In this document: piece by piece, positions 3,842-36,901 of the stretch
How positions within the stretch are numbered: the stretch's first letter is position 1
How the letters are laid out: each line of letters begins with the position of its first letter
Assembly (NCBI GenBank): GCA_003230635.1
Contig: QIFF01000045.1
Coordinates: 1 to 36,901 of the forward strand
Reading direction: 5' to 3'
Source: a bacterium
Lineage (GTDB): Bacteria; SZUA-182
Length of the DNA stretch: 36,901 bases
Position numbers and translations under genes: made by a program
The notes under the pieces: model-generated
Databases searched by the model: none
Told to the model about the DNA's origin: nothing
What the model saw: the letters and a program-made list of their open reading frames with translations, nothing else

Positions 3842-4780
3842 CTATATGAGACTTCTTTTTGCAGAATGTAGGTCTTTGTAATATTCCAGCGAGACAAATT
3901 TTTCTTGCGGCAGTTTTTTACCTTCTTCCAAGGTGTTGATCACTGTCCTGTTAACAATTGCCGGCGCATACTCAGGATCTATTTCCAGGGCCGTATCAAG
4001 CGCCGTCAGGGCGTCTGCCTTCCGGCCTAATTGGGCCAGGCAAAGCCCGATATTTCCATAACTTTGCGGATGCCTGTCGTTTATCGCCAAGCATTCCCGA
4101 AATCCGGCCATTGCTTTTTCCCATTTCCCATCTTCCATGTCTGAATATGCTCTTTCAAATTTTTCCTGAGCTTCAAAATATTTTTCCAGGCTAATTTTAT
4201 TTGCTTTCAAAACCAGCTCTTCTATGTTCCTGATAAGATTTTTAGCTTGTTGGACGAGCTCATCCTGAGCGTCGCCCACTTCAACGACCTCTTGGAAAGA
4301 CTTTATGGCGTTTTTAAGGTCAAGTTTACTTTTATAAGCCATTGCCTTGTTGAAATGCGCCTCTACGAAGTAAGGAAATATATCGGTGGCTTTGCTAAAA
4401 AACTTTATGGCTTCATCAAATTGTTCCTCAAAGGCATAAACCACGCCCAGCCCATAATTAACCATGTGGTTTTCGGGGTGTTGTCTTATCAGTTCTTCAA
4501 GAATCACGCGACCTTTTCCAATCCTCCCCTTTTCCACAAATATCAAAGCGTTGTCAACAGCATCTTCAACTTCTTCATTAATTTCTATAATGAAGGGTTT
4601 TTGCTTAAGTTTTTTTGATTTTGACGATTGGTAGTAGGTTACGGCCTGGAAGTATCGGCACCCTTCACACTCGGAATGGCGTAAATTGGCACAACACAAT
4701 GAACAGATAAATTTCCCCTTTATCCTGCATTCTCTTCGGGCCTTGTTTTTAGTGCAGAGTTCGCATCTGCGCTTTTTCAT
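3842..4780 (-). CDS. TPR-repeat protein with N-terminal Cys-rich zinc-knuckle-like region
   Basis: 312 residues. Residues 6-42 contain four CxxC-like pairs (CELC, CRIK..CSLCC, CEGC), suggesting one or two zinc sites. From about residue 70 the protein is built of tetratricopeptide-like helices (VNYGLGVVYAFEEQFDEAI; AHFNKAMAYKSKLDLKNAI; SYGNIGLCLAQLGRKADAL). No signal peptide or membrane segment is seen, so it is cytosolic. It overlaps the upstream RhuM-family gene by 4 bp (ATGA), so the two are made together. The TPRs suggest it scaffolds another protein, plausibly RhuM, but the function is unknown. Confidence 0.8.
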   Translation of the reverse strand: MKKRRCELCTKNKARRECRIKGKFICSLCCANLRHSECEGCRYFQAVTYYQSSKSKKLKQKPFIIEINEEVEDAVDNALIFVEKGRIGKGRVILEELIRQHPENHMVNYGLGVVYAFEEQFDEAIKFFSKATDIFPYFVEAHFNKAMAYKSKLDLKNAIKSFQEVVEVGDAQDELVQQAKNLIRNIEELVLKANKISLEKYFEAQEKFERAYSDMEDGKWEKAMAGFRECLAINDRHPQSYGNIGLCLAQLGRKADALTALDTALEIDPEYAPAIVNRTVINTLEEGKKLPQEKFVSLEYYKDLHSAKRSLI

Positions 4781-5835
4781 TTTTTATATCCAGTGTCTTG
4801 TTGTGATTTTTCAATCTGTTTCACTTCTTTAACCGCCTCCAGAAAATGTTCTTCCACCGGAGAGGGATCATTTAAATGTGCCTGTCTGTATTTCTCGTAT
4901 TCGGCATGAGCCTTTTCCAACGCTTGCTGGTGGCTGATCGTTCCCGCATGGGTTAATATTTCACGGTCACTGATTTTCAAGAATTCGTCCAGTTTGGCAA
5001 TCCAGTTACGCATATACATCGGTTTACGGTTAAGCGCCTGAAGCTCGGCAAATTCCAGATAGATTGTAACAATCCGGTTCAAGGTATCTATCTCTGCCTG
5101 GTTCAGGTAATTCTTGGCAATGCCTGCGTCGCTTTTCCTGGGTTTATCGCTCTGCCAGCAAGTCAGTCCCATGTTGGAATCAGCGGCGTCGGCACGGGAG
5201 TAAATGATTTCCGCCACCGTATGCCCGTGAGCCGCCCAGTGCACTTTATTCTGTACCACCGCAAAGAACTCGCGGGAAACATCGCTGTTCGGGTCATAAT
5301 CAATGCTGGTGGCGTATATATCCAGCACCTTGCGCCAGAACACCTTTTCCGAGGAACGGATATCCCGGATACGGGCCAGCAATTCGTCGAAATAGTTGCC
5401 GCCCCCCGTTTGCTTGAGCCGTTCATCGTCCAGGGTGAAACCTTTAATAATGTATTCCCGCAGCCGTTGCGTAGCCCAGATACGAAACTGGGTACCCCGC
5501 TGGGATTTTACCCGGTAGCCGACCGAAATAATGACATTGAGGTTGTAAAAATCAACTGGCCGTGAAACCTGCCGCTTGCCTTCAGTTTGAACTATCCGGA
5601 ATTTCCGGATAGTTGGCTCAGGCTGCAATTCGCCTTCTTCATAAATGTTTTTTATGTGCTCGTTTATAGTACGCACATCCTTTTGAAACAACTCCGCCAT
5701 CAGCTTTTGACTGAGCCAGACCGTTTCATTCTCCAGCCGCACTTCAATACGAGTCTTGCCGTCCCCGGTTTGATACAGCAAGAACTTGCTATTTGGCGTT
5801 AACTGATTGTTAGATTCGTTCTTGTTTTTATCCAT
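4777..5835 (-). CDS. RhuM-family protein
   Basis: 352 residues matching the RhuM family throughout: ETVWLSQKLMAELFQ (HTH-like), RTINEHIKNIYEEGEL, DFYNLNVIISVGYRVKSQRG, then FRIWATQRLREYIIKGF and NKVHWAAHGHTVAEII. RhuM proteins are found on pathogenicity and defence islands. They have been linked to virulence, but their biochemical role is unclear. The N-terminal part looks like a winged-helix DNA-binding module. Ribosome binding site: AAGGAAAAA before ATG 5835. It is the first gene of a two-gene unit with the TPR protein. Confidence 0.9.
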   Translation of the reverse strand: MDKNKNESNNQLTPNSKFLLYQTGDGKTRIEVRLENETVWLSQKLMAELFQKDVRTINEHIKNIYEEGELQPEPTIRKFRIVQTEGKRQVSRPVDFYNLNVIISVGYRVKSQRGTQFRIWATQRLREYIIKGFTLDDERLKQTGGGNYFDELLARIRDIRSSEKVFWRKVLDIYATSIDYDPNSDVSREFFAVVQNKVHWAAHGHTVAEIIYSRADAADSNMGLTCWQSDKPRKSDAGIAKNYLNQAEIDTLNRIVTIYLEFAELQALNRKPMYMRNWIAKLDEFLKISDREILTHAGTISHQQALEKAHAEYEKYRQAHLNDPSPVEEHFLEAVKEVKQIEKSQQDTGYKK

Positions 5836-6081: not shown

Positions 6082-9000
6082 TTATCCGTGAGTAGCCAAG
6101 TAAGTAGGGGGAGAGAATAATTTGGTATGTTTTTTGACGTTGTTGATGGCATTTAAGAAATGGCTGGCACAGACTCGTACTGTGTCAGCAGGGATATTTT
6201 GGGCGATAGCTTCTTTGACAGCCAGCAGGCCAGCTTCGTTGGTTAGATGTTCAATCTCGGCGCCGGAGAAGCCGTTAGTGAGCGCTGCCAGTTTGGTTGC
6301 TTGGACATCCCCGGCAACGGGCATTCTGGCTAAGAGCTTTCTAAACAGTGCCACACGGCCTTTCTTGTTCGGCACTCCCATAAAGACCCGGCGGTCTATG
6401 CGTCCCGGGCGCAGAATGGCGGGATCAAGGTAATCGGGAAGGTTGGTGGTAGCAATGATCAGGATACGTCCCCGTTCGGACAATCCGTCCATGAGCACCA
6501 GCAGTTGGGAGACGATTTCCCGCAGATAGGAAGCGTTTGGCTGGCTGCGTGCCCCGGCGACGGCATCGACCTCGTCCATAATAATGACAGATGGGGCGAG
6601 TCCAGCAGCCCGTTGGAAGGTCTCTCGTAACATACGCTCAGAGTCACCCAGCCATTTTGAGAGAAGCTCAGGGCCACTGATGGTTTCGATGTGTGCCCCT
6701 GATTCTCCGGCAACGGCACGGGCCAGCATGGTCTTGCCGTTGCCCGGCGGTCCCCAGAGCAGAATCCCCCGGCCCGGCTTCACCCCCACCTGCTGAAATA
6801 GTTCTGGGTGTAAAAGCGGCAGTTCGGCATAATCACGTACTAATTCCACCGCTTCATCCTGGCCGCAAACATCAGCGTAACGGGTGGGGGGAATATTGCG
6901 GGAACCTGCTTGAGATGTTGACGGAGTGATGAAACCAAACGCCCCTTGCGTATTTTGAATACCTGCTACGGGAAGCACAGAGGGCCAGGTCTTTTGTGCC
7001 TGCTCGGAGTGTGCCTCCAAGGTTATCCCAAACGGCAAGCGGCGAATGTTTTTGGGAAAGACCCAGGCTGGTTTATTGTTCTCGATAAAATAGCCCATCG
7101 TCCAACGGTTGCTTTGGGCGGGGTCGAGTTTTTCAGGCAGGCCCTTGATACGTTCCATCACCCGCTGGTGGTCAAAGAAGGGGCATATTACTAACGGTTC
7201 ATTGAACGGCGTATCAAGTTGATTTAGCAAATTATCTTTATCCAGGCTGACAACTTTACCGTCAAATTTACCCGCCGCATACCAGGCCGGTTCCTCCTGG
7301 GCGATTCCGGGAAAACCGGGTGCGGGCTTGAAGCGGATCTGCTTGCAACACAGGGCAAGCGCTGTACGGCAGCCATCCGCATTTCTCTTTTGCATCCTCC
7401 AGCAGGCGGCGATGTCATTAATGCTGTTTATTACGTCCTGAAAATCGTGATAACCAAGCGGATCGTTATTGACCAGAAACTCCGCTCCCTTCCAGCGCCC
7501 GATAAGGCGGTATAAATTCTCAATGCGGCGAATATTTTCCACCAGGGTGTTTTGCTCAAATGTCAGCATGTAGTGCCGGGGCCGGCCTTTGTCATCACTT
7601 TCCATGGAGAGACCACCGGCATGAGACATGGCTCTGATTCTGCGCACCGCCACCTGAAAGTTTACCGAGGGGGTGCGGGCAAAGGATATTTCCATATCCA
7701 GCCGGAAGTTTTTGCCGGTGCTGCAAGATGTGGGTAAAGACAAGGGTGATAGTCGCTGTTCTGTATCCGACAGTCCTTGCCGGCTCCAGCCGCGGGTGAT
7801 TTTCTCTTCCTGCCAGTTTTCAATCAGAGCGCTGATCTTATCCATGCCGGAAGCTACCCGGACTTGGGTTTTGAGCGGCTCAGACCTGCCCGGGGTAAAA
7901 TCGGTAAAGAAGACAACATAGGGCGGATAGAGCGGGTCAACATTTTCCTTGTTGGTTTTCCAGGCCACAACCTTGCGCACGCACAGCCCGGCAGCAATGT
8001 CTTTGTAAAAGACTTCACGCTTTATAACAGTTGAGCGGGGAAGCTGAATATTCTGAATCGTGCCCGCATCTGCTATGGGAACTAAATCGGTAACCTGGCA
8101 CATACCTGTAGTGTCAGGCCCTACGGTTTTATCCTCCCGAATTCGCCTAAAGACCGCGTTAATTAAACTTACCGCCGGCATGGGTCTGAGGGGCTGCCAG
8201 GCATTTTCTGGATGATATTCCAAAGCCATACGGCGCACCGGTTCGCCGCTGGAACGGACGGCCAGCAAGTCATTGCACTTGGTCTCTACCACAACTTGCG
8301 GTTTTAAAAACTGAAACAAGGCCCCCGAGCGGGCCGCTGCCAGATACGAGGACTGCGCCGCCAGGGGTTGCAGCCTGCGCCACAGATCGTATCGCTCCGC
8401 CTCGCTGAAGCCGGTGTTCACTCGTCCCAGGAGTTGGAAATTTCCATCAGGCCGCTGGAGAGCTAATAACAATTCAGCTATGCCGCCGTTAGTACGACAG
8501 GTCATGCCTACTATCACTGCGTCGATGCTTACTTCCAGCTTTATTTTCAGAATCTGGCAATCCGTAGAGCGGACTACTACCCCCTCATGCCCCTGGCGGG
8601 TGACTAACTGTTCATACGCCCTCAACACCCCGCCTGCATTGAGTGTCTTTTCAAAGGGCACGCTGTGGCAGAGTCTGCCCCCAGCCAGAAGCTTCATGAG
8701 CCGCTGTGCCCGCTCGGCAAAGGGGCGGCGCTGATAATTACTCCCATTCTCCAGCAAATCAAAAGCGGCAAAGTGCAGCCGGGCAATTTCTGCCTTAGCC
8801 CCGCCGCCGAGGGCGGCATGCAGGTCATGCACGCGGGGTCGGGTTGGCTGCCCGTTGGCGTATAATTCGCCAGCCAAAAGCAGATGCCGCTTGCGGAAAA
8901 TGCCGGCAGCCTCCTCAGTAACCGGGACATCGCTGATGATTTTTCCTGAAGGCGACAGCAGCCATGCTCCCCCATCCCCGGCTGATAAAAACCAGGTCTC

Positions 9001-9204
9001 GCCATCTATCTTGGGGGAAACAATGTGCTCTCCCGGTGGTATGACTTTGAGAATATCCTGAGGCGCAACAGTGCGGTATCTTCCCGCCACCTGACTTTTA
9101 TAGATTGCAATGCGTTCGGCCAGTTTCTTGTCAGGGATCGACCCCGGCGGGGATATGCGGCCTGTGCCCAACTGTTTCCAATGTATTTTCTCTTGTGCAA
9201 TCAT
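6082..9204 (-). CDS. Fusion of an ATP-dependent DNA-ligase-type adenylyltransferase with a AAA+ ATPase
   Basis: 1040 residues. Residues 60-270 carry the nucleotidyltransferase motifs of ATP-dependent ligases: motif I K65-I-D-G (adenylated lysine), acidic E113 (LLLAGELY), motif III FAAFDLL (146-152), motif IV HEGVVVR (206-212) and motif V LKIK (219-222). A probable OB domain follows (DAVIVGMT onward). Residues about 350-770 are not recognised. Residues 776-1025 are one Cdc48/FtsH-like AAA+ domain: Walker A GPPGNGKT (818-825), Walker B IIMDEVDA, and arginine fingers RPGRIDR (about 932-938). Such AAA+ rings remodel or unfold proteins. I know of no standard ligase with this fusion. It overlaps the upstream Ku-like gene by 4 bp. 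Inferred role: sealing DNA ends with ATP-driven removal or remodelling of bound proteins. Ligase activity is untested, and RNA ligase is an alternative. Confidence 0.85.
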   Translation of the reverse strand: MIAQEKIHWKQLGTGRISPPGSIPDKKLAERIAIYKSQVAGRYRTVAPQDILKVIPPGEHIVSPKIDGETWFLSAGDGGAWLLSPSGKIISDVPVTEEAAGIFRKRHLLLAGELYANGQPTRPRVHDLHAALGGGAKAEIARLHFAAFDLLENGSNYQRRPFAERAQRLMKLLAGGRLCHSVPFEKTLNAGGVLRAYEQLVTRQGHEGVVVRSTDCQILKIKLEVSIDAVIVGMTCRTNGGIAELLLALQRPDGNFQLLGRVNTGFSEAERYDLWRRLQPLAAQSSYLAAARSGALFQFLKPQVVVETKCNDLLAVRSSGEPVRRMALEYHPENAWQPLRPMPAVSLINAVFRRIREDKTVGPDTTGMCQVTDLVPIADAGTIQNIQLPRSTVIKREVFYKDIAAGLCVRKVVAWKTNKENVDPLYPPYVVFFTDFTPGRSEPLKTQVRVASGMDKISALIENWQEEKITRGWSRQGLSDTEQRLSPLSLPTSCSTGKNFRLDMEISFARTPSVNFQVAVRRIRAMSHAGGLSMESDDKGRPRHYMLTFEQNTLVENIRRIENLYRLIGRWKGAEFLVNNDPLGYHDFQDVINSINDIAACWRMQKRNADGCRTALALCCKQIRFKPAPGFPGIAQEEPAWYAAGKFDGKVVSLDKDNLLNQLDTPFNEPLVICPFFDHQRVMERIKGLPEKLDPAQSNRWTMGYFIENNKPAWVFPKNIRRLPFGITLEAHSEQAQKTWPSVLPVAGIQNTQGAFGFITPSTSQAGSRNIPPTRYADVCGQDEAVELVRDYAELPLLHPELFQQVGVKPGRGILLWGPPGNGKTMLARAVAGESGAHIETISGPELLSKWLGDSERMLRETFQRAAGLAPSVIIMDEVDAVAGARSQPNASYLREIVSQLLVLMDGLSERGRILIIATTNLPDYLDPAILRPGRIDRRVFMGVPNKKGRVALFRKLLARMPVAGDVQATKLAALTNGFSGAEIEHLTNEAGLLAVKEAIAQNIPADTVRVCASHFLNAINNVKKHTKLFSPPTYLATHG

Positions 9205-9902
9205 CCCGGTTGTACCAATTCCAAATGAGATAGATGCAGTATCAAAAGATATTTTTTACCCCTGATACGGCCTTCCAGGAACCCTCGATAAGGCAAACCG
9301 TTACGTTCCAGCAGGAGGGGATATTTTCCCTGCAGTCCAGCCCCTAACAGTACCAGGGAGTCGGAGCGGTCAAGCTCTTTTGCCATGCCAAAGAGAAAAT
9401 CGAAGGTCAGTCCGTCAATGTGGCGGATTTGGTAATTACGGGTAAAGACAAAACGCCGGATTGCCTGCGAGCGCTTGAACATCTTTCCCGTCCAGACCAG
9501 GGGTTTCTCTGTGTCAACATTAGAGGGCGTATTCAGTGGCTGCCTGCGTTCGATTTCTTCACCGTTGGTATCCAGTACCACTTCTATTTCAGAGGCGGCA
9601 TAAAGCACCTGTCCCTGTGAATCCAGCAGCACCCGGTCGGTGGGGCCGGTCTTCCTCCCCGCCGCTTCCAGGTCAATCTCCGGATCGGCCTCCAGCAAGA
9701 CTTGAGCCAGTTCCCGGTCGCTGTTACAGCGGGTGCGCAGATAGTCGTAAGTTTGTGGTAGGGGCGTTTTGATAATCTTAGCCGCCGTTACAGGTCTTCC
9801 GTCATCAGTTTTAAACTGTATGGACGGTGCCGCCTCTTTTGGCTCCATGCGCACCCGTGCACTGCGACCCTTGTTATCGCTCAATCTAATCCATCGTGAC
9901 AT
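9201..9902 (-). CDS. Ku-like protein, larger subunit (divergent)
   Basis: 233 residues, not matching a family at sight. The C-terminal half can be aligned by eye, from memory, with bacterial Ku. FTRNYQIRH takes the place of the DRSYFLEP strand, and GMAKELDRSDSLVLLGAG the place of the LLAKTLAETDRMAIV helix-strand. KYPLLLERNG then GRIRGKKYLLILHL fits the last Ku strands. It is also distantly similar to the 196-residue protein encoded just upstream (TxxGRxxLxxxG..DxxGexxERxQpL region). It is sandwiched between that gene (13 bp gap) and the ligase-AAA gene (4-bp overlap). Expected role if Ku-like: ring-forming DNA-end binding and ligase recruitment. The Ku call is inference. Confidence 0.5.
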   Translation of the reverse strand: MSRWIRLSDNKGRSARVRMEPKEAAPSIQFKTDDGRPVTAAKIIKTPLPQTYDYLRTRCNSDRELAQVLLEADPEIDLEAAGRKTGPTDRVLLDSQGQVLYAASEIEVVLDTNGEEIERRQPLNTPSNVDTEKPLVWTGKMFKRSQAIRRFVFTRNYQIRHIDGLTFDFLFGMAKELDRSDSLVLLGAGLQGKYPLLLERNGLPYRGFLEGRIRGKKYLLILHLSHLELVQPG

Positions 9903-9915
9903 AACCCCGTACCCT

Positions 9916-10506
9916 CTATATCATTCCAAAATCTATATCGTCACCAACATCATAGCCATCTTCACCAATGTCCGGTGGCGAAAGATCAGCCTCCGCCAGC
10001 CCGATGAACCCAAATCCCGTCCGCTCCCCAATTAGCAAATAGCCCGCCTCGTTCCCAAGCAAAAAAACCCGGCGGCCATTATGTTCCGGCAGGCGATAAA
10101 TTGCTCCCTGAGACAACGATTCTTCCAATTCGGCGCAGATAAAAACCGGCTCCAGGGCATAGGCGCGGGTAATGCTGCATTCCAGCACATCGGCAGCCTC
10201 CACTGCCTGAACAACCTCCAGCGTCCTATTGATGTTTGATTCTCCCGGCTTTGCCGTTTCCCCCTCTGGGCTGATAAGCTGACTGCGCTCCACCACATCA
10301 CCCTGCTTATCCAGGTAAAGCATCGCCGAGCCGCCATTGGGGAGAATATGCCTTCCGTCCCGGGTCAGGGCCGCCCGTGAACACTCATGTCCTTGTCCAT
10401 CAACAGGTATCCGCCGTTTTGAGCCGTAAAGTTTTGAGCGGACAATTTTGCTGACCGTAAAGCTCGATCCCTTGCCCTCATAGGAAATCTCAAGTATCCG
10501 CCGCAT
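9916..10506 (-). CDS. Ku-like protein, smaller subunit (divergent)
   Basis: 196 residues with an acidic tail (DGYDVGDDIDFGMI). Compared from memory with mycobacterial Ku, several blocks coincide in order. GSSFTVSKIVRSKLYGS matches GSIAFGLVNVPVKVYSA. LYLDKQGDVVERSQL matches the YESxDGqmVaiTdddi strand region. LEVVQAVEAADVLECSI followed by TRAYALEP matches EVLEFVPAADVDPMMFDRSY-FLEP. The ribosome binding site AGGAGG lies 9 bp before ATG 10506. A close paralogue is at 36161-36754. Functional inference: DNA-end binding, possibly as a heterodimer with the 233-residue protein. No zinc or catalytic motif is seen. Confidence 0.52.
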   Translation of the reverse strand: MRRILEISYEGKGSSFTVSKIVRSKLYGSKRRIPVDGQGHECSRAALTRDGRHILPNGGSAMLYLDKQGDVVERSQLISPEGETAKPGESNINRTLEVVQAVEAADVLECSITRAYALEPVFICAELEESLSQGAIYRLPEHNGRRVFLLGNEAGYLLIGERTGFGFIGLAEADLSPPDIGEDGYDVGDDIDFGMI

Positions 10507-11396: not shown

Positions 11397-11476
11397 GGTA
11401 AAACTCGATTTTGAAATTCAACCCCTACCTTAGTTTTAAGAGAAAGAAGTTTTTTGCCCAAGTGCCTCTTTTTTAT

Positions 11477-11505
11477 TTGACAAACATGACAATTTTCGCT
11501 AACAT
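11477..11505 (+). promoter_or_regulatory. Promoter of the Xre-RES pair
   Basis: TTGACA at 11477-11482, a 17-bp spacer, and TAACAT at 11500-11505 (4 of 6 matches). AAAGGAG and the antitoxin ATG (11540) follow. Confidence 0.55.
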
Positions 11506-11539
11506 TACGACAGAAGTCATAATACAAAGGAGATTTGAA

Positions 11540-11971
11540 ATGGAACTTGCAACTGTTGAAAAAATTTTGGGGGGACGTAAGACCCTCAGCAAACACCTGG
11601 AAAACGATATGGACCTAATCGAGCTATGCAAGAGCGGGGTGTCTAAAAAAGCTCTTTTAAGTCTTGCCAGCTATTTAAATATTTCGGTGCATCAGCTCAG
11701 TAGCCGGCTTCCTGTAACTGAACGCACGATACAAAGGTATTCATCCGCTACCTGCTTTAAAAAAAGCGTTTCCGAACAAATATTGTACATTGCTAAAGTT
11801 GCGGCTAAGGGGGTTGAAGTCTTTGGAGATAAGGAAAAGTTCCTCTTTTGGCTCAAACTCCCCAACAAAGTACTGGATAATAAAGCGCCGTTTAACTTGT
11901 TAGATACAAAACTGGGAGCAGATATGGTATTAGAAGAACTTGGTCGCATGGAATATGGAATCTTCGCTTAA
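11540..11971 (+). CDS. Xre/MbcA/ParS-type antitoxin of a RES toxin
   Basis: 143 residues from ATG 11540, chosen because AAAGGAG lies 7 bp upstream. A longer in-frame start at 11411 has no such site. The N-terminal half holds a helix-turn-helix (ALLSLASYLNISVHQLSSRL, then TERTIQRYS). The C-terminal part matches the toxin-binding domain of Xre-MbcA-ParS antitoxins (GDKEKFLFWLKLPNKVLD, then NLLDTKLGADMVLEELGR). It shares one base with the start of the RES gene. It should neutralise that toxin and autorepress the promoter at 11477. Confidence 0.9.
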   Translation: MELATVEKILGGRKTLSKHLENDMDLIELCKSGVSKKALLSLASYLNISVHQLSSRLPVTERTIQRYSSATCFKKSVSEQILYIAKVAAKGVEVFGDKEKFLFWLKLPNKVLDNKAPFNLLDTKLGADMVLEELGRMEYGIFA

Positions 11972-12429
11972 TGGAAGTCTATCGCATTGCTAAAGAAAAT
12001 AACATTTATGACCTGTCAGGCGCTGGAGCCAGGAGGTTCGGCGGAAGGTGGAATCTTGAGGGAACAAGTGTTATCTACACTTCGGAAAGCAGAGCGTTGG
12101 CCAGTCTGGAATACCTTGTACATGTACCGATTACACTGACCCCGAGCGGACTTAAGATAGCGGTTGTTCATGTGCCTGATGAAATAAAGCCAAAAGAAGT
12201 CTCTATTTCTGAATTGCCATATAACTGGAGAGATTATCCTGCGCCTCACGGGTTGGCTAAACTGGGCAGCAATTGGGTAAAATCTAAAAAAACACTTTTG
12301 CTTCGGGTGCCTTCGGCTCTTGTCTTAAATGAGTATAATATCCTCATCAATCCTGCACATGAAAATTTTAAACTTATTGAAGTCAGGTCTGCCGAAGACT
12401 TTAAGTATGATAACCGTTTGCTGGAATAA
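11971..12429 (+). CDS. RES-domain toxin (NAD+-degrading type)
   Basis: 152 residues, a full RES domain. The polar residues used by this family are visible: R26 (FGGRWN), Y36 (VIYTSES) and E47 (ASLEYLVH), with the downstream strand [19 protein letters not shown]. Characterised RES toxins (for example MbcT) degrade NAD+, arresting growth. The start codon overlaps the antitoxin stop (TAATG), so the two are translated together. The locus looks intact. Confidence 0.92.
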
Positions 12430-23430: not shown

Positions 23431-24257
23431 TGCAAGCCTCCGTAGTAAACAGTTGTTTTGTATTTTAGTTCTAGTGTCTTAGGGGGAGGTAAAAACCCTT
23501 TAAAAAAGCGACTACTTTTTACATCCTTGGATTCAAAGAATATGGGAAACTGTAAGAGCAGTTCGGAAGAAAGTTCTGTAGGCAACTCTGAAAATTCTGC
23601 AAATGGAAGAAGGTTTTTAAATTCCAGTAGTCTTTTTATATCTTCATAAATGGCCTTTTTATACGAATCTTGTTCATTAGATAAAAGCAAATCGACCACT
23701 TTGAAGATTTCTTGCCATTTGAGGTGGAAGAATTTGTTTTGAGCCTCTTCTATGCCTTTTGTTCTCAGGATATTTAAGCTTTGCTCAATTTCATATTCAG
23801 CTTCAAACGGGGTGAGATAAATAAACGCCAATATGTCACCTGAAAATCGTTGATGGAAACTTTGTCTTCCTTCAATGCTGCTTAAGGCCAGGTAATACCT
23901 CATGAGTTGGTCTTTTTCTCCCTCACCATGTTTCCCTGAAAAGTATTTAATTTCTATGGGAACAAGAAAAGAACCTAAGTTTCCCTCTAAAGTGATTATC
24001 AGATCTGGTTCTCCATAAATAGATGACCTTGGCCAAAAGTGACATTGGACTTTATCAAAATCGGTTAACTCCACGTTTTGAAGTTTAAGATATGCCTCTA
24101 AACTCTTTTTTTGTTGATAACTAAAAGAAGCATTTAACAGGGGGAATAACCCGTCATTCGGTGACAAATATTTTAGAACCCCAAAAATACAAGATGTCAA
24201 ATAATCTTCATAAGATTTCAATTCTGGAAGTTTACCAGCTAACTCTGCTTCGAACAA
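23427..24257 (-). CDS. PD-(D/E)xK nuclease-superfamily protein
   Basis: 276 residues from TTG 24257, preceded by AGGAGG at 5 bp. The nuclease core is clear: E83-P84-D85 (YGEPDLIITLEG), the strand LVPIEIKYF with E102 and K104, then the KDQLMRYYLAL helix with Q117. This is the order of PD-(D/E)xK enzymes, including several defence nucleases. The remainder is helical. The start lies inside the end of the sigma-54 regulator gene (19-bp overlap), indicating coupled expression. The substrate is unknown. Cleaving foreign or host DNA after signalling is a reasonable hypothesis. Confidence 0.72.
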   Translation of the reverse strand: MFEAELAGKLPELKSYEDYLTSCIFGVLKYLSPNDGLFPLLNASFSYQQKKSLEAYLKLQNVELTDFDKVQCHFWPRSSIYGEPDLIITLEGNLGSFLVPIEIKYFSGKHGEGEKDQLMRYYLALSSIEGRQSFHQRFSGDILAFIYLTPFEAEYEIEQSLNILRTKGIEEAQNKFFHLKWQEIFKVVDLLLSNEQDSYKKAIYEDIKRLLEFKNLLPFAEFSELPTELSSELLLQFPIFFESKDVKSSRFFKGFLPPPKTLELKYKTTVYYGGLQ

Positions 24258-25891
24258 GGTGTCCTCCTGGTATTTGCAACATACTTAGTGCTTCTGCCAT
24301 TTCCCACACTGACTATTAATCCTCTGCTCATCAGTTCCTTGCACCAAGCAACGATGGTTTTTGGAGCTACGTCAAACATCTGGCGAGCCGTTTTGTTGTC
24401 AATGAATCCCTTTTCTCTGATGTGTTCCATTATTTGTTGTTGCTCGGGTGGGAGTTTTTCCTTGTACTCAAGGGGAGTGGAAGTTTTGGCTTCTGGGCTA
24501 TTCCCCTTTGATAGACGAACATCGGAGAGTCTGTACTTATCAATCTTGGCCTTGAGGGTGTTTTCTGAAATGCCGAGTTGGGTTGCAGCTTCTTTCTTGG
24601 TTTTGAAGTTTAACAATGCCCGGCGGATGGCTTCTTTTTCCACGGTTTCCAGATTGAAGTCTCCTGCATTTTCGACCACTTCCGTTACTGATTCTGAAAT
24701 CTTTATGTCAAAATCCTCAGGCTGCAAAGTGTCTGAGTCGGAAAACAACACAGCTCGGTTTACTATAGCTCCCAACTCCCGTACGTTTCCCGGCCAGTAG
24801 CAACATTTAAGTCGGTTCAATGCCCTGCGGCTCAACTGTTTTTCCGGTTTGTCATGTTCACGGCAATAGTTTTTGATAAGATGGGGTGCCAGAAGATCGA
24901 TATCCTCCTGTCGCTCCCGCAGGGGAGGGATGTGGATTCTGATTTGGTTTAGCCGATAGTACAAGTCGCTGCGAAACTTTCCGTCTTCCATCATTTGCTC
25001 CAGATTTCGGTTGGTAGCGGCAATAATTCGCACATTCACCCTTTTTACCTCATTGCCACCCACCCGGCGGAATTCTTTCTCTTCTAAAAAGCGCAGGAGT
25101 TTTACCTGCATCTCCCCGTTAATATCGCCAATCTCATCCAGGAAGACTGTGCCGTTATTGGCAGCTTCAAAGATACCGTTCTTGCGCCTTCCAGCCCCAG
25201 TGAAAGCTCCCTTTTCATAGCCAAATAGTTCGCTGTCTAGTAAGTTGCCAGAAAGGTTGTTACAGTTCACTGGGAAATATGTGGCCTCCCGGCGAGGGCT
25301 AAGATTTACGATTTCCTTGACCACTAGTTCCTTGCCGGTGCCGGTTTCCCCAGTAATCAATACAGTCGCTTCACTGGGAGCCACCTGAGTTATCGTCTTC
25401 TTTATTTTATCCCAAAGCTTACTCTTAGTAATTAACCCATCAAACTCCGGTTTTCCTAGAACTGCATGGCGCAGGATTTTATTTTGCAGGCAGATGTCTT
25501 TTAGCAGTCTTCCCTTCTTTACCAGGGCGTCCAGCCAGGTGCCGAGGTCATCTTTGTCCACAAACTCAACAATACCATATTCCAGCAGCTTGATGGCGGT
25601 TTTACTGGACTGCAGCCCCGAAATGACAACCACCGGCACCAGGGGCAACTTTTCTTTGATGGTTTTGAGCAGCTTTACTCCCAGGGTGCCGCGCTCATCA
25701 ACCTTGCCGCCCTTATTTTCCGGCAGGCACAGGTCAAGGAAGATATAGTCAAAATCTTCCCGCTGCAGGGCCTTCAGCGCTTCCTGGTAGCAAGAGGCGA
25801 TTTTCAGGTTGTAATGCTTCTCAATCTTTTGCCGGATGTATTTCTGATCCCGTTCCTCATCTTCAATTAAAAGGATAGTTTCCCGTTCCAC
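24239..25891 (-). CDS. Sigma-54-dependent response regulator with extra C-terminal winged helix
   Basis: 550 residues. The receiver domain (1-125) has an acidic pocket E10-D11-E12, phospho-acceptor D53 (FLDLCLP), S91 and K113. The AAA+ activator domain has Walker A GETGTGKE (181-188), the sigma-54-contacting GAFTGA (228-233) and Walker B VFLDEIGD. A Fis-type HTH follows (about 415-465), then an additional winged-helix-like domain (about 485-545; IDNKTARQMFDVAPKTIVAW). The GTG start at 25891 follows GAGGTG and lies 2 bp after the SIR2-kinase stop, so the two form a cognate pair. Once phosphorylated it should drive RpoN promoters. I found no convincing -24/-12 site in the window. Confidence 0.93.
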   Translation of the reverse strand: MERETILLIEDEERDQKYIRQKIEKHYNLKIASCYQEALKALQREDFDYIFLDLCLPENKGGKVDERGTLGVKLLKTIKEKLPLVPVVVISGLQSSKTAIKLLEYGIVEFVDKDDLGTWLDALVKKGRLLKDICLQNKILRHAVLGKPEFDGLITKSKLWDKIKKTITQVAPSEATVLITGETGTGKELVVKEIVNLSPRREATYFPVNCNNLSGNLLDSELFGYEKGAFTGAGRRKNGIFEAANNGTVFLDEIGDINGEMQVKLLRFLEEKEFRRVGGNEVKRVNVRIIAATNRNLEQMMEDGKFRSDLYYRLNQIRIHIPPLRERQEDIDLLAPHLIKNYCREHDKPEKQLSRRALNRLKCCYWPGNVRELGAIVNRAVLFSDSDTLQPEDFDIKISESVTEVVENAGDFNLETVEKEAIRRALLNFKTKKEAATQLGISENTLKAKIDKYRLSDVRLSKGNSPEAKTSTPLEYKEKLPPEQQQIMEHIREKGFIDNKTARQMFDVAPKTIVAWCKELMSRGLIVSVGNGRSTKYVANTRRTPCSKQS

Positions 25892-25893
25892 GT

Positions 25894-27789
25894 TTACACC
25901 TCAAAAGCTATCTTAAAACTGGTTCCCTGATCAAGTCGGCTGTCTTCAATGCAAATGCTGCCGCCGCTTTTTATGACAGCCTCTTTGCACAGGGCCAATC
26001 CCAGACCGTCACTGCCCTTGGTGGTATTGCCCGGGTCAAAAACAGATTCCCAACGTTCTTTTTCTATCCCTCGCCCATTATCAATAACCCACACCCCTAT
26101 TGAGTCGTTGTCCCGACAAGTTCTGATAGTAATAAGTTTTTTCTTTTGCCCCGAAGGAAAGCTTTCAACAGCGTTCTGTATCAAATTCAATAATACATAG
26201 CTTATTTCACTCTTATTCAGAAACAGTTCCAGCATGTTTTCTTCACTTTCCAACTCCAGTTTAACCTGTATCCCGTGGTTTTGCAGTATATCTTCTTTGC
26301 TCTCCATGACAGCTTGAATCAAAGAGTTAAGGTTGTGCTGCATTCCTTCCAGGTAATTAAAAACCCTGGTCAAGGTTTTCTTAAGCCCTCGTTTTAGGGG
26401 GATAAGCCGGTTCTTTATTTCCGCGCCGGGAGTATCGGCTTGAAAAAGCGTGGCTATTTTCCGGGCCTGCTCATCAATATCAGAAAAAAATGAAGCCCCC
26501 AAAGATTGGTTGATCAGCCCGCTTACCTGCTGATATTCCCGAAAGAACCTGGTAAATATCAGGTTGGCTTGATTTATCTCCCCTTTCTTAAGTTTCGCAT
26601 CCAGGGTGTCAAACAGATGTTTGTATTTATTGTGCATTAGGATAGAGACGGCCCGGTAAATTTTTCTTAACTCGGCTGCCCTTAATTTTTCCAGCCTTGA
26701 GTGGAATTCTTGTTCCCAAAGCAAGCGTTGCTCCGGGTCGACCAGAGGCAACGGTTTTGCGTTGCCCGCGTCCTGAGGGTTTTTGGCCCGGTTTATTGTG
26801 CCGGCGACATTGACATGGGTATACGCAAAAGGGGATGCTTCCACTGACTTTGTGTTCTCGGCTCTCATGCCTCGTGTTGGTAAAGCGTACTTGTCCGCCA
26901 AAGCGTTAAGCCACTCAGACAAGGTTTCGTGTTTGTTCCGGCTGGGATAAAAGAGAATTTGGGCGCCGTAGACCATTTCCTCCCTTTCCCGCAGCAGGTC
27001 CGCTGCTTGCATCTGCTCATCATCCAGCCCCACCAGGGCAATATGTCTTAGGGGCGACTTTTTGTAATCGCCGCTGATACTGGCGAGAAGTTGTTTTATG
27101 TAGGGCGAATTCAGTTCAAATCCTACGATGATTAATCTCTTTAAAACAAACAGATTATCCAGCAACCTTACAAAAGGGGCATAGTTGTATGCCCTGCGGA
27201 AATCATCCAAAGTAAGAATAATTGATCCGGCGCGGTCATAGCGCCCGTGGGCGTGAAGGATCAGGCGCTTAAATCCGTTTGTGCGAAGAATGTTTCTGAC
27301 TTCCTCCTGATCCCAGAAATAGTAGGAAGTGACCGCCCTCGGATACAGATATGCCCTGGCATTGGTCAATCCGGCATCGTAATTGAGGGTCAAATAGTTC
27401 TGAATTGGCAGCTGAAGCAGGGCCTGCTGAGAGGTGGTAAACGCTTCGCCGGTTTGATCTGAGGTCTTATCGCTAAAAACTTCCTGAAGATATTCGAAAT
27501 AAAGTTTATCGCCGAGTTTGTTGCGCAATTGCTGGGCGGTTTCCAGTGGTGTCTGGACGGCCTCTTTTTGAATAAACCCGGCTTCAGTTTGGTTTAGTTT
27601 TCCGCATTGTTGGGTACGTTCGATAAGCCCTCGCAAAAATTCTTTGCCCAGCGGCCACAACTGGGCCGAAGCCCCGGGGCCTACCAGGGCAATCGCTTCT
27701 CTTGCCTCCAACAGGTTGCCAAGTTCTTCCAGCACCGGGCCATTGTCCGGGACAACCCGAATTTCTTTTTCTATCTCTTTCCAACCCAT
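25894..27789 (-). CDS. SIR2-like domain fused to a histidine-kinase core
   Basis: 631 residues. Residues 30-295 are a SIR2-like domain: GPGAS (37-41), N136 (YLTLNYD) and H181 (LHAHGRYD), the Asn and His used by SIR2 NADases, then IIVGFELNSPYI. A linker follows. Residues about 370-520 are a helical dimerisation region with a candidate phospho-His H485 (GMQHNLNSLIQAV). Residues 525-631 are a HATPase_c domain: N-box NLIQNAVES, G1 DNGRG (570-574), G2 DGLGLAL. There is no membrane segment, so this is a cytosolic sensor. The SIR2 part matches the next upstream gene's SIR2 part residue for residue in numbering. It is followed 2 bp later by a sigma-54 response regulator. The fusion is unusual. Whether SIR2 acts as sensor, effector or both is unknown. 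Confidence 0.9.
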   Translation of the reverse strand: MGWKEIEKEIRVVPDNGPVLEELGNLLEAREAIALVGPGASAQLWPLGKEFLRGLIERTQQCGKLNQTEAGFIQKEAVQTPLETAQQLRNKLGDKLYFEYLQEVFSDKTSDQTGEAFTTSQQALLQLPIQNYLTLNYDAGLTNARAYLYPRAVTSYYFWDQEEVRNILRTNGFKRLILHAHGRYDRAGSIILTLDDFRRAYNYAPFVRLLDNLFVLKRLIIVGFELNSPYIKQLLASISGDYKKSPLRHIALVGLDDEQMQAADLLREREEMVYGAQILFYPSRNKHETLSEWLNALADKYALPTRGMRAENTKSVEASPFAYTHVNVAGTINRAKNPQDAGNAKPLPLVDPEQRLLWEQEFHSRLEKLRAAELRKIYRAVSILMHNKYKHLFDTLDAKLKKGEINQANLIFTRFFREYQQVSGLINQSLGASFFSDIDEQARKIATLFQADTPGAEIKNRLIPLKRGLKKTLTRVFNYLEGMQHNLNSLIQAVMESKEDILQNHGIQVKLELESEENMLELFLNKSEISYVLLNLIQNAVESFPSGQKKKLITIRTCRDNDSIGVWVIDNGRGIEKERWESVFDPGNTTKGSDGLGLALCKEAVIKSGGSICIEDSRLDQGTSFKIAFEV

Positions 27790-27918
27790 AATTGAGACAA
27801 TCCGAAATTTCGTGTCAGCAAGGATATTGACAATGGGAGGGGTTTTTGCCGGCAGAGGTTAATAGGATGGGTAACCCGTTTGAGACAGGGGCAAATCGTT
27901 TGCCGGTCAAGTCGCTTA

Positions 27919-30900
27919 TTATTTCTTCCCGGCTAGTACCTGGTCATCAAATATTTTCAGGGTTTCGGCTTTTATGCCCTGGAATTCTTCCTCACTAACG
28001 GTTAGCAAGCCGCTCCGTTCTGCTTCGGCTTCCCGTAAATACCTCTGAGCCAGTTCCCTCTCGCTGTCGGCGTCATAGGTAAGCAATGAAACCTTGACCT
28101 TATGATGCGAGTAAAGCAGATCCAAGGCAGCTATCTTCGCCCAAATATAGCCGCTGTCCTCGGCGATTTTAAGGGCCTTATGCCCGCTGTCCCCCGCCTT
28201 TTCCAACAACTCGTCATCTCTTTCGCCCTCTTGTTTGAATTTCAATAACAGCAATCTCCCCTGCAAGCACAGAGCGTCCGCCTGCTGCAGGCGAAAACCC
28301 TTATCCTCACAAATAAGAAGCGCTTCCTCCACCCGCCGTAAGCCCTCTTTATAGTCCTTCTTGGCTTCGGCCAACAACCCCCAGACCCATTCCAGGCGGC
28401 TGAGTTCCCTGGGTAATTTGGCGGGGCGCAGGATACGATCTGCCTGAAGGAGTGATTTCTTCGCCTGTGATAACCTATCTATCCCTATTTCATACCAACC
28501 CTGGAGGAGGTGGCATAAGGCAAGAGCGACGTTCCAATGATTTTCTTTGCATTTCTCAATGTTCCAGGCGTTGGCCTCTTCAAACCGCTTCCGGTCATTG
28601 AGCCTAAGAAACACTTCCGCCTGCCGGTTGCCGTCTTCCGCGGATAAGTAATCTGTCGTGAAGGTTAATTTTCGCTCGCATAATACGGCAAGCGCGAAGC
28701 TACGATAGGCAACGGGAGTATCACCCAGCAAATAATCGTAATAACCGTCATTGGCGAATGCGGATATGAAAACTTCATACTGTCCGCTGTTCTTCAACAG
28801 AGCCAGTGCCTGGGATACGGTTTTGCACGCTTGTTCGATATTACCCAGGGCATTTTCGATTTCCGAGATTTTACTCAATATAAACGCCTGAGTCCTCTTT
28901 TTTTGTAATGAGCGGTAAATCTCCAAGGCTTTATATCGCCATTCCCGGGCCTGCACCAGGTTCCCTAAATGGTAGTTATACAAACTTACCGCTGAGATAT
29001 AAGCCGCCAGCATCTGTTTGCCCAAAGCGGCTTCGGTCTTTTTTTGCCGGGCTTCGTCGCCGGCAAAGGCCAGGGAGGCATCCAAACCCTCAACCGGCGC
29101 CGGAATATCCTTGAAAACATTAAACTCGTAACCGCCCGTGGCCAATCTGGTTATATGCAAATCATGGGCGGTTTTAACCTCTCCTTCTTCACAGAGCAGT
29201 TGCACCGCTTCCACCAGGTCCCGCACTTCCTCGATGTTTTGCGGCTTTCTTTCTCCCGGGCGTGTTTGGAGGAAGTCGGCCACCTCGCGTCGTGAACCGC
29301 TTAACTTTAGCCGATTGCGGAAATAGTCGCGGATAACCGGGTGGCAGGTCAGCCCCTCTTTGGTTTCCATTACCAGAGAATCATTCGTTAAAACTTTGAT
29401 CTGCTCCCGGATAGCAACCCCATCCGCTCCGGCCAGGGGAGTGTGTTTCAGAGACTTCATTCTCCCCAGAAGGATTATTAAGTTACTTGTGTCAACCGGC
29501 CTTTTGAAAAGACTGATAATTCCTAATAATTCCTTCTGCCCGTTTTCCAGCTGTCTTTCATAAAAACCGAGCGTGTGCTCCAACTTCTGGCTCAGTTCAT
29601 CTTTGCTGTCCGCTGTTAAAATATGCTCCCCTCCAAAGCGGCCCAGGTCGCCGTCGCAAAATCTCTTGACCGCGGCGGCCAGCACCCTCAAGGCCAGGGG
29701 ATGTCCATATAATTTTTCCACATACTCTGTCAAAAGCGCTTTATCCCCTCGCAGCCCTAATTTTTTCAGGAGGGAGACCCCGCAGCGGGAATTGAGGCGC
29801 AACAGGCTCAGGTGATGAAACAAGGCGCCGCTGTAATGGCTCAACTGGGGAAAGGCAAAGCGGCTGGTAAGGATCATGAGACTTTGGTGTTTATGATGTA
29901 CCCACTGCTGAAGCAGTTGCTGCAAAAGGGGGTCAAGAATCCGGCCGTGAACCAGGCCGCCCGCTTCTTCCTGCAATACCTCCAGCCCGTCCAATACCAC
30001 CAGGATGCGAAATTGTCGGGCGGCTCCAAGTAAGAAGGAAACCAAATGCGGCTCCCGCTTGGCATCGATATAATGAACAATGGGTTCTAAGAAATGGACG
30101 ATTTCCTCCAAAAATTTCCCTACATCCAAATCCTCATAGAAGCTCCAATAAAAGACCGGCATCCGGGCCAGCTCCGATTCTCTCATCCGCTTCAGCCAGC
30201 GTCCTATAAGGGAGGTCTTGCCCTGGCCGCCTATGCCGGTGACGGCAATAATTCGCGTAGCCGGGTCATTACCCCAGCGGTTCAAGGCGGCAAAATCCTC
30301 TTCCCGGCCCTCGAAGATATCATCATCGGTGGGTTCATGAACATATCTGTCCGATAGGGTTTTTGCCGGAGAGGACACCTTGATCGGTTGTATCTCCCCG
30401 GCGCTCATGCTCCCTCTTGTTGAGGCGTATACCAGTGCCAGAGTATTCAACCAGGCCGCCAGGATTTCGTGGTTATTCCGGCTGGGATAGAAGATAATGC
30501 GAGCCCCGTAGAGCATTTCCACTCTTTCCCGGTATAGGGCGGTTAATTCCATCTTCTCTTCATCCAGACCCACAAAGGCGACATGCCGCCGCAGGGAATC
30601 TTTATAATTCCCGCTGATGTTGTCAAAAAGCTGCTTTATATAAGGGTCTCTCCAGTTAAATCCCGCCATAATCAAGTTCTTGAAGTTGAAGAGGTGGTTT
30701 AGCAGTCTGACAAAGGGGGTATAGCTATATGCCTCACGGTAATCATCCAGGGTCAGAATGAGCGAATCCGGGCGGTCATAGCGCCCGTGGGCGTAAAGAA
30801 TCTGTCGTTTAAATCCCTTGTGGTCCAGGATATTCTTGGCTTGCTCCTGGTCCCAGAAATAATAGGAGGCGGTAGCCCTCGGATATAGATGCACCCTGGC

Positions 30901-32556: not shown

Positions 32557-32842
32557 CTCCGCCCGGAGCGTATCGACCGTAAGATATTCATGGGGATGCC
32601 AAACAAAACCGGGCGAGCGGCGTTGTTAGAAAAATGGTTCTCGCATGCCCATCGCCGAAGATGTTTCAGCGGACAAGCTGGCTGCCACAACAGAGGGCCT
32701 TTCCGGAGCCGAAATTGAACACCTCACTAACGAAGCCGGTCTGCTGGCAGTCAAAGAAGCCATTGCCCAAAATATCCCCGCCGAGGCGGTCAAGGTTTCC
32801 AATAAGCATTTCCGGCAGGCACTCAACAACAAAAGGCATTAA
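32557..32842 (+). pseudogene. 3' remnant of a second ligase-AAA gene
   Basis: Translation gives LRPERIDRKIFMGMPNKTGR, then after a 2-base deletion near 32635-32644, MPIAEDVSADKLAATTEGLS, GAEIEHLTNEAGLLAVKEA and IAQNIPAEAVKVSNKHFRQA. These correspond without gaps to the last quarter of the AAA+ domain of the 1040-residue protein (LRPGRIDRRVFMGVPNKKGR; ARMPVAGDVQATKLAAL; GAEIEHLTNEAGLLAVKEA). Everything upstream of the arginine-finger region is gone, and the sequence joins a truncated toxin gene at about 32556. Confidence 0.9.
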
Positions 32843-36160: not shown

Positions 36161-36754
36161 ATGCAACGGATATTTGAGATTCTCTATGAGGGCAAGGGAT
36201 CGAGCTTTACGGTCACGAAAATTGCCCGCTCGAAGTTTTACGGCTCAAAACAGCGGATACCGGTAGATGCGCAAGGACATGAGTGTTCGAGGGCATCCTT
36301 GACCCGGGACGGAAGGTACATCCTGCCGGCTGGGGGCGTGGCCATACTTTACTTGGATGACCAGGAAGATGTGGTGGAACGGAATCAGCTTCAGACAATT
36401 GACCCAGATGGAGATGTTATGAAGCCGGGAGAATCAACTCCTGATACAGTGCTGGAACTTGCTCAGGTAGCGGAAGCTACCAATATCTTAGAATGCAGTA
36501 TCGCCCACGTCTATGCCCTGGAGCCGATTTTTATTTCTGCCGGACTTGAGGCGTTGTTGTCTCAGGGGACAATCTATCGCTTGCCGGAGTGTAATGGCCA
36601 CCAGGCTTTCCTGCTTGGAAATGATGTGGGCTACTTCCTGTTGGTTGGGATACTGACTGGCTTTGAATTTGTAGGGCTGGCAGAGGCTGACCTTTCGCCG
36701 CCCGAGCTTGATATTGACGAGGTGGGGAACGAACTGGATTTTACCATGTTGTAA
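36161..36754 (+). CDS. Ku-like protein, smaller subunit, second copy
   Basis: 197 residues, a close paralogue of the protein at 9916-10506 along its whole length (FEILYEGKGSSFTVTKIARS; GHECSRASLTRDGRYILPAG; YLDDQEDVVERNQL; EVGNELDFTML tail). The Ku-type segment is kept (LAQVAEATNILECSIAHVYA then LEP). TAGGAGG precedes the ATG. The following gene is the paralogue of the larger Ku-like subunit, so the locus continues to the right, probably with its own ligase-AAA gene. Ku assignment as for the first copy: inference. Confidence 0.55.
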   Translation: MQRIFEILYEGKGSSFTVTKIARSKFYGSKQRIPVDAQGHECSRASLTRDGRYILPAGGVAILYLDDQEDVVERNQLQTIDPDGDVMKPGESTPDTVLELAQVAEATNILECSIAHVYALEPIFISAGLEALLSQGTIYRLPECNGHQAFLLGNDVGYFLLVGILTGFEFVGLAEADLSPPELDIDEVGNELDFTML

Positions 36755-36767
36755 GGAGACTTAAGAA

Positions 36768-36901
36768 TTGTCCCGCTGGATTAGGTTGAGTGACGGTAAG
36801 GGCCGTAATGCCCGGGTTCGTATGGAGCCTAAAGAGGCAGCACCATCCGTACAGTTTCAGGCCAATGACGGTAGGGTTGTAAGAGCGGCTAAAATTATCA
36901 A
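36768..36901 (+). CDS. Ku-like protein, larger subunit, second copy (cut by the right edge)
   Basis: A TTG start at 36768 with AAGGAG 9 bp upstream. The visible 44 residues (SRWIRLSDGKGRNARVRMEP, KEAAPSVQFQANDGRVVRAA) match the start of the 233-residue protein at 9201-9902 almost residue for residue. It is 13 bp after the preceding gene, the same gap as in the first copy. Confidence 0.85.
   Translation, partial: MSRWIRLSDGKGRNARVRMEPKEAAPSVQFQANDGRVVRAAKII

What the first reader, a model, noticed from the sequence alone, without database searches (positions are those of the whole stretch)
6082..10506. Candidate end-joining machine: two Ku-like proteins plus a DNA ligase fused to a AAA+ ATPase
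Seen: KIDG and the later ligase motifs in the same chain as a complete Cdc48-like AAA+ domain. Two small, mutually related proteins are translationally or closely coupled to it. Established: bacterial Ku (PF02735) recruits a ligase to DNA ends. Inference: the small proteins align by eye with Ku, including the SYxLEP and LxxAxxLxxxD segments, so this may be a Ku heterodimer working with an AAA-ligase. That would differ from the usual Ku-LigD pair.
Basis: partly seen in the sequence, partly recalled or inferred. Interest (0 to 1): 0.93.

Follow-up and report, generated by a model that had tools for sequence, protein, structure and literature searches.

The report
Two-part Ku with ligase-unfoldase fusion
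A three-gene bacterial operon encodes an ATP-dependent DNA ligase fused to a Cdc48-type motor next to two small proteins predicted to fold like Ku, so it likely makes a DNA-break-joining machine that differs from the usual bacterial Ku-LigD pair and that the standard Ku profile does not recognise.

The parts
9916..10506 (-). S1: 196-aa small protein, predicted Ku/SPOC-type beta-barrel with conserved basic KxxRxKLYG segment (20-32) and an acidic C-terminal tail with conserved D192-F193
9201..9902 (-). S2: 233-aa small protein, predicted Ku-like (low-confidence model); stop overlaps start of L by 4 nt
6082..9204 (-). L: 1040-aa ATP-dependent DNA ligase fused to a C-terminal Cdc48-type AAA+ domain
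8557..9066 (-). L residues 47-216: adenylation domain with motifs I (KIDG, K65), III, IIIa, IV
8128..8490 (-). L residues 239-359: OB-fold domain ending in motif VI RIREDK
7780..8043 (-). L residues 388-475: conserved domain found in stand-alone ligases too (VRK..WKTNK...FTD.S..R..PL...GW); no database match
6895..7779 (-). L residues 476-770: domain of the AAA-fused clade, with cysteines C601, C620, C674 identical in 105 of 105 aligned members
6199..6894 (-). L residues 771-1002: Cdc48-type AAA+ domain (GPPGNGKT from 818, MDEVD from 876, RPGR from 932) with lid
36161..36754 (+). second copy of S1 (197 aa; 66-68% identical to S1)
36768..36901 (+). start of a second S2 copy (TTG start), cut by the window end
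   Evidence: sequence read directly
32557..32839 (+). degenerate remnant of another L copy: AAA C-terminal part in two frames (62% and 72% identity)

Best explanation
This operon encodes a DNA ligase fused to a Cdc48-type AAA+ motor with two small proteins predicted to have Ku-like barrels, and it likely works as a bacterial end-joining machine in which S1 and S2 would pair into a clamp on broken DNA ends and hand them to the ligase. Shown by our calls: the three-gene cassette, its order, the ligase and AAA motifs, and that the fused proteins form one clade. Predicted: the Ku-type fold of S1 (good match) and of S2 (weak model). Inferred: S1-S2 heterodimer ring on DNA ends; recruitment of the ligase, perhaps by the acidic tail of S1; sealing by ATP-dependent ligation. 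Inferred for the fused form only: since a closed Ku ring is trapped once the ends are sealed, the Cdc48-type motor in the ligase chain would pull the ring apart and release it, the role of p97 on Ku80 in animal cells (PMC5577460, passages). In the commoner unfused form another factor, or a ring that opens by itself, would have to do this.
Confidence: 0.7

Rival explanations
1. An anti-phage or mobile-element conflict module: the AAA-ligase and its two partners act on invading DNA (for example on linear phage ends) rather than in housekeeping repair.
For: The window carries SIR2_2-NACHT and SIR2_2-HATPase genes, RhuM, a Xre/RES pair and a resolvase; L001 has a type I restriction system beside the operon; L003 has Fic and amidoligase genes. 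One serine-recombinase cluster is shared by exactly three of 48 loci, all with the fused form: window, L001, L003. The window has further partial copies, and equal contig lengths suggest contigs with two L genes. Operon G+C 54% against 47% for the window. PADLOC IetA matches the AAA part.
Against: The IetA match covers the AAA domain only and no IetS-type protease was found among the five window proteins scanned. Stand-alone cassettes share no neighbours, and 118 neighbours give a mixed Pfam list, of which the first 25 of 122 families were shown. No S2 match in 72,556 plasmids or 50,697 phages, none for L in IMG/VR. No nuclease or toxin domain recognised in the cassette.
Confidence: 0.14
2. 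An RNA or nucleotidyl-transfer system: L is a nucleotidyltransferase that repairs RNA or adenylates another target, and S1/S2 are SPOC-like adaptor barrels.
Confidence: 0.08
3. Real end-joining cassette, but the AAA part remodels other obstacles (nucleoid proteins, polymerase) or is a regulatory ATPase, not a Ku extractor.
For: One AAA domain plus a clade-specific middle domain with invariant cysteines of unknown role; most cassettes examined do without it.
Against: Cdc48/p97 is the known family for pulling Ku off sealed DNA (PMC5577460, passages), and a pore-loop pattern with an aromatic residue is found in 84 of 106.
Confidence: 0.35
4. S1 and S2 are not Ku relatives at all; the similarity is a shared common barrel topology produced by weak models.
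For: Low pLDDT, no PF02735 match, no Foldseek match for S2, profile scores near those of block-shuffled controls.
Against: Two separately modelled families point to Ku: S1 in Foldseek and the second look, S2 in the second look only; both stand in conserved order before a DNA ligase.
Confidence: 0.15

Closest known systems
Bacterial Ku (PF02735) with LigD, e.g. B. subtilis and mycobacterial NHEJ
   Same: Ku-type barrel predicted for S1 (best PDB match) and weakly for S2; dedicated ATP-dependent ligase encoded beside it
   Different: Two different proteins in one operon instead of a homodimer; no PF02735 match; no helical C-terminal arm; ligase has no polymerase or phosphoesterase domain by Pfam, and in this clade carries a AAA+ motor
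Eukaryotic Ku70/80 with ligase IV and p97/VCP
   Same: Two unlike Ku-type proteins, a ligase, and a Cdc48-family motor; p97 removes trapped Ku80 from sealed DNA (PMC5577460, passages)
   Different: No vWA or SAP domains found by Pfam; removal there depends on ubiquitin, which was not looked for here; the motor is covalently part of the ligase chain
Heterodimeric or multiple Ku in Sinorhizobium and Streptomyces (recalled; PMC5124664 seen as a listing with the start of its abstract)
   Same: More than one Ku in a bacterium
   Different: Those are ordinary Ku paralogues (recalled); here two sequence-divergent proteins stand next to each other and to their ligase
Archaeal/eukaryotic-type ATP-dependent DNA ligases
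   Same: Closest solved relatives of the ligase part (E 1.8e-20), motif VI RIREDK
   Different: The N-terminal DNA-binding part of those ligases lies outside the match; extra C-terminal domain (388-475) and AAA+ fusion
SPOC domains (PHF3, SHARP, FPA)
IetAS anti-phage system
   Same: IetA profile matches the AAA domain of L
   Different: No IetS found among five window proteins; the IetA match covers only the AAA part

Membership tests
Ku (PF02735) | Matches the curated Ku profile | tested here: not met
   0 of 91 S2 and 0 of 46 S1 members match PF02735 at E <= 1
Ku (PF02735) | Ku beta-barrel core fold, S1 | tested here: met
Ku (PF02735) | Ku beta-barrel core fold, S2 | tested here: inconclusive
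Ku (PF02735) | Helical arm after the barrel (recalled feature) | tested here: not met
   S1 and S2 end soon after the last predicted strand, S1 with an acidic tail of about 30 residues; based on low-confidence models and length
Ku (PF02735) | Dimer ring that threads on DNA ends | not testable with these tools
   No complex prediction or assay available
ATP-dependent DNA ligase | Motifs I, III, IIIa, IV, V, VI with catalytic lysine | tested here: met
   106 of 106 fused and 37-38 of 38 stand-alone proteins for 13 key residues
ATP-dependent DNA ligase | Adenylation domain plus OB-fold domain | tested here: met
   PF01068 (30.3 bits, cut-off 26.2) and PF04679 (46.2, cut-off 27.5) in L
ATP-dependent DNA ligase | Ligation activity | not testable with these tools
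   needs assay
LigD | Polymerase and phosphoesterase domains with the ligase | tested here: not met
   Pfam finds ligase and AAA-type domains only; TIGR02779 68 bits against a cut-off of 228
Cdc48/p97 | AAA ATPase core with Walker A, Walker B, arginine finger | tested here: met
   105, 106 and 104 of 106 by sequence pattern; CDC48 profile E 2e-73 over one domain
Cdc48/p97 | Tandem AAA domains and Cdc48 N domain | tested here: not met
   One AAA stretch and no Cdc48 N-domain row in Pfam; CDC48 score 248 against a cut-off of 803
IetAS | IetA ATPase with IetS protease | tested here: not met
   Only the AAA part matches IetA; no IetS among the five window proteins scanned

The most novel reading that the evidence does not exclude
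A self-clearing end-joining machine: a bacterial two-subunit Ku-type ring, too divergent for Ku searches, works with a ligase that carries its own Cdc48-type motor, so one polypeptide both seals the break and extracts the Ku ring trapped on the sealed DNA.
Probability: 0.35. Interest if true: 0.93.

Novelty: new variant of a known kind. Interest (0 to 1): 0.85.

Why it matters
Surveys of bacterial NHEJ rest on Ku profiles (for example PMC7719229, passages: a Ku HMM at E < 1e-4 over 5,973 genomes). PF02735 does not see S1 or S2, and I expect similar profiles to miss them. In the phylum of G002 the cassette is as common in our sample (36 of 282 genomes) as classical Ku (37 of 282), so a sizeable share of bacterial end joining may have been overlooked. 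It would also give bacteria a two-subunit Ku like Ku70/80, and the fused form makes an open question testable: how a closed Ku ring leaves sealed DNA in bacteria, where the ubiquitin tagging used in animal cells is not expected.

Tried and rejected
Sequence-only proof of Ku homology was tried and failed: profile searches of the PDB with S1 and S2 alignments gave no Ku chain; hhalign and HMMER benchmarks gave only weak signals, partly at the level of shuffled controls. A first hhalign run used Ku reading frames taken from the wrong strand for part of the set; it was discarded and redone, with 38 of 39 Ku loci kept (L113 too short) and 91 of 93 S1 rows kept. The weak CsgG match of 14 of 46 S1 members was not pursued; no CsgG entry is among the 50 Foldseek rows shown. 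The domain at L 388-475 looked like a WGR domain by eye, but neither Pfam nor the PDB supports this, so it is not claimed. Recurring partners (polymerase, nuclease, separate AAA gene) were sought by clustering neighbours and none recurs in more than 4 of 48 loci; of 120 listed neighbours 118 were scanned with Pfam (two left out for the size limit) and only the first 25 of 122 families were shown, so single cases are not excluded. Plasmids, phages and viral contigs: no match. Loci L005-L009 (26-28% identity) were dropped as other ligases. One S2-positive genome of 48 (G781) was not fetched with flanks. Alignment A5 uses 36 of 41 listed genome S1 sequences, A6 39 of 40 S2, A7 24 of 31 L; the rest I left out as longer or doubtful reading frames. 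The tree holds 43 of the 106 fused database proteins, three fused loci and 38 stand-alone ones. First AAA patterns gave Walker A 99 and arginine finger 17 of 106; I then widened them (105 and 104). L091 has lost the catalytic lysine and was kept in the counts as the exception.

Full report
Observation. The three genes lie on the minus strand in the order S1 (9916-10506), S2 (9201-9902), L (6082-9204); S1 and S2 are 13 nt apart and S2 overlaps L by 4 nt. L holds an adenylation domain, an OB-fold domain and a C-terminal AAA domain with lid, each over the Pfam cut-off. The AAA part scores as Cdc48/proteasomal-ATPase type (CDC48 profile E 2.2e-73, one domain). S2 matches nothing in Pfam, NCBIfam or PADLOC at E <= 1; S1 only DUF3107 at 0.09.

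Conservation. Database searches gave 667 S2 relatives at E <= 10 (120 listed), 46 of S1 and 140 of L (120 listed). Where a source gives a name, S1 and S2 relatives are hypothetical proteins and L relatives mostly AAA ATPases. Names include Planctomycetota, Armatimonadota, Deltaproteobacteria and Candidatus Schekmanbacteria. In whole genomes the S2 profile hit 1 of 291, 6 of 392, 36 of 282 and 5 of 195 genomes in the phyla of four seed genomes: 48 of 1160. The tool does not name the phyla; the seeds are titled Armatimonadetes, Planctomycetota and two Deltaproteobacteria.

Cassette. I examined 47 of these 48 genomes with flanking DNA, plus the window. S2 and an L-family gene are adjacent in 47 of 47; S1 is found in 45 of 47 (missed in L074 and L092; L092 is also short in S2 and L). 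In a few loci the drawn order looks altered because an open frame starts upstream of the likely start (L028, L061, L069, L094). Outside the cassette no protein cluster recurs in more than 4 of 48 loci; 118 scanned neighbours give a mixed Pfam list (first 25 of 122 families shown). S1-S2 gaps are 8-16 nt in 19 of 35 measurable loci and S2-L overlaps are exactly 4 nt in 18 of 35. One database protein reads as a shortened S1 joined to S2 (P0041). The three genes thus form a self-contained, closely coupled unit.

Two forms of L. In 31 of the 47 genomes L is an open frame of 455-535 residues: ligase plus a conserved domain of about 90 residues (388-475 in the window), without AAA. Three of the 47 are fused (L001, L003, L061); the others are longer open frames with upstream extensions, or fragments. 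A tree of 84 ligase cores (43 of 106 fused database proteins, three fused loci, 38 stand-alone) puts all 46 fused rows in one clade with support 100/100. The root is a midpoint, so 'fusion is derived' is inferred from its nested position. The fused clade adds a middle domain (476-770) with three cysteines invariant in 105 aligned members.

Ligase part. The core profile finds archaeal DNA ligases at 1.8e-20, human ligase I at about 1e-10 and a LigD ligase domain at 2.5e-9. K65, D67, G68, E113, F148, D149, E207, G208, K220, K222, R356, D358 and K359 are identical in 106 of 106 fused proteins and each in 37 or 38 of 38 stand-alone ones; R354 varies. L091 is the stand-alone protein without the KxDG lysine. 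Motif VI (FRRIREDK) follows the archaeal/eukaryotic ligase pattern.

Sequence-level Ku tests. Profile-profile alignment of S1 with 38 Ku sequences is colinear over 179 columns (score 19.9), pairs F16, I21 and K25-L26-Y27 of S1 with the Ku motif SFGLVxIPVKLY, and pairs S1 LD...VYxLEP with Ku IDP...YYLxP. Controls: 0 of 40 reversed-rotated, 5 of 60 12-column-shuffled and 21 of 60 25-column-shuffled Ku profiles reach that score; for S2-Ku (15.9) 0, 18 and 36; for the S2 core with Ku (15.5) 0, 20 and 27; for S1-S2 (27.4) 0, 0 and 20; for S1 with the S2 core (27.3) 0, 5 and 16. The 40 reversed decoys score almost alike, so they count for little more than one. Single-sequence scoring shows small shifts only, and reversed Ku sequences outscore S1 and S2 on the Ku profile. 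By sequence alone Ku membership is not shown. S1 has a conserved basic stretch (R23 in 44 of 45; K or R at 20, 25, 30 and 32 in 38-41 of 45) and conserved D192 and F193 in its tail (44 and 42 of 45); a stricter acidic-tail pattern fits 28 of 45.

Relation to classical Ku. In the phylum of G002, 37 of 282 sampled genomes have PF02735 Ku and 36 of 282 have the cassette; two (G834, G862) have both. The expected overlap is 4.7, P(<=2) = 0.11, so avoidance is not shown, but the cassette does not depend on classical Ku. In the phylum of G001, 9 of 59 sampled genomes have Ku. No Ku match was found in the seed genomes G001-G004.

Mechanism. The most economical reading is end joining: S1 and S2 as a divergent two-subunit Ku clamp and L as its ligase. 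In animal cells a Ku ring is interlocked with DNA after sealing and p97/Cdc48 extracts ubiquitin-tagged Ku80 (PMC5577460, passages; the primary paper, van den Boom 2016, seen only in its reference list). A Cdc48-type motor covalently joined to a Ku-linked ligase fits that task: Walker A in 105, DExD in 106 and RPGRxD in 104 of 106 proteins, aromatic pore loop in 84 of 106 (patterns searched over the whole chain). This step is inference. The unfused majority shows the motor is dispensable for the core reaction, if that reaction is end joining.

Context. Three of the four fused loci seen with neighbours (window, L001, L003; not L061) share a serine-recombinase cluster found in no other locus of the 48. 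The window also has SIR2-type, RhuM and Xre/RES genes, L001 a type I restriction system, L003 amidoligase and Fic genes. The window holds a second S1 copy and S2 start at 36161-36901 and an AAA remnant at 32557-32839. A defence-related use of the same chemistry cannot be excluded.

Literature. Searches of the held library showed no description of a two-gene Ku-like pair with a dedicated ligase or of a ligase-AAA fusion; only open-licence papers are held and titles, counts and abstract starts were seen. Read as passages: PMC11936186 (bacterial Ku complexes 'mostly homodimers'), PMC12784961, PMC7719229, PMC12784962, PMC5577460; the others were seen as search listings only.

Verdict. A real, recurring cassette without a family model in the libraries searched; Ku-like for S1 with good, for S2 with moderate to weak structural support; function and motor role untested.

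Noticed in passing
window 36161-36901 (+): A second, inverted copy of the operon start: S1 copy (66-68% identity) and the first 134 bases of an S2 copy with TTG start, cut by the window end.
   Followed up: partly
window 32557-32839 (+): Frameshifted remnant of the AAA C-terminal part of a further L copy.
   Followed up: partly
window, L001 12564-14600, L003 544-1926: One serine-recombinase (resolvase) cluster is present near three of four AAA-fused operons and in none of the other 44 loci compared.
   Followed up: no
window 25894-31329 (-): Two adjacent SIR2_2-domain proteins (one with HATPase, one with weak NACHT and TPR matches; 68% identical over a 300-nt stretch), beside a sigma-54 activator at 24239-25891; look like defence or signalling genes.
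   Followed up: no
window 4777-5835 (-) and 11411-12429 (+): RhuM-family protein directly downstream of L, and a Xre/RES toxin-antitoxin pair upstream of S1.
   Followed up: no
L003 6909-8638: Amidoligase_2 and glutamine amidotransferase genes directly upstream of the Armatimonadetes S1-S2-L operon.
   Followed up: no
L residues 476-770 (window 6895-7779): Fused-clade middle domain with invariant C601, C620, C674 and invariant tryptophans 571, 641, 714; no Pfam domain; could bind zinc or recognise the motor's substrate.
   Followed up: partly
L091 (G762): Stand-alone cassette whose ligase has lost the motif I lysine while S1 and S2 remain.
   Followed up: no
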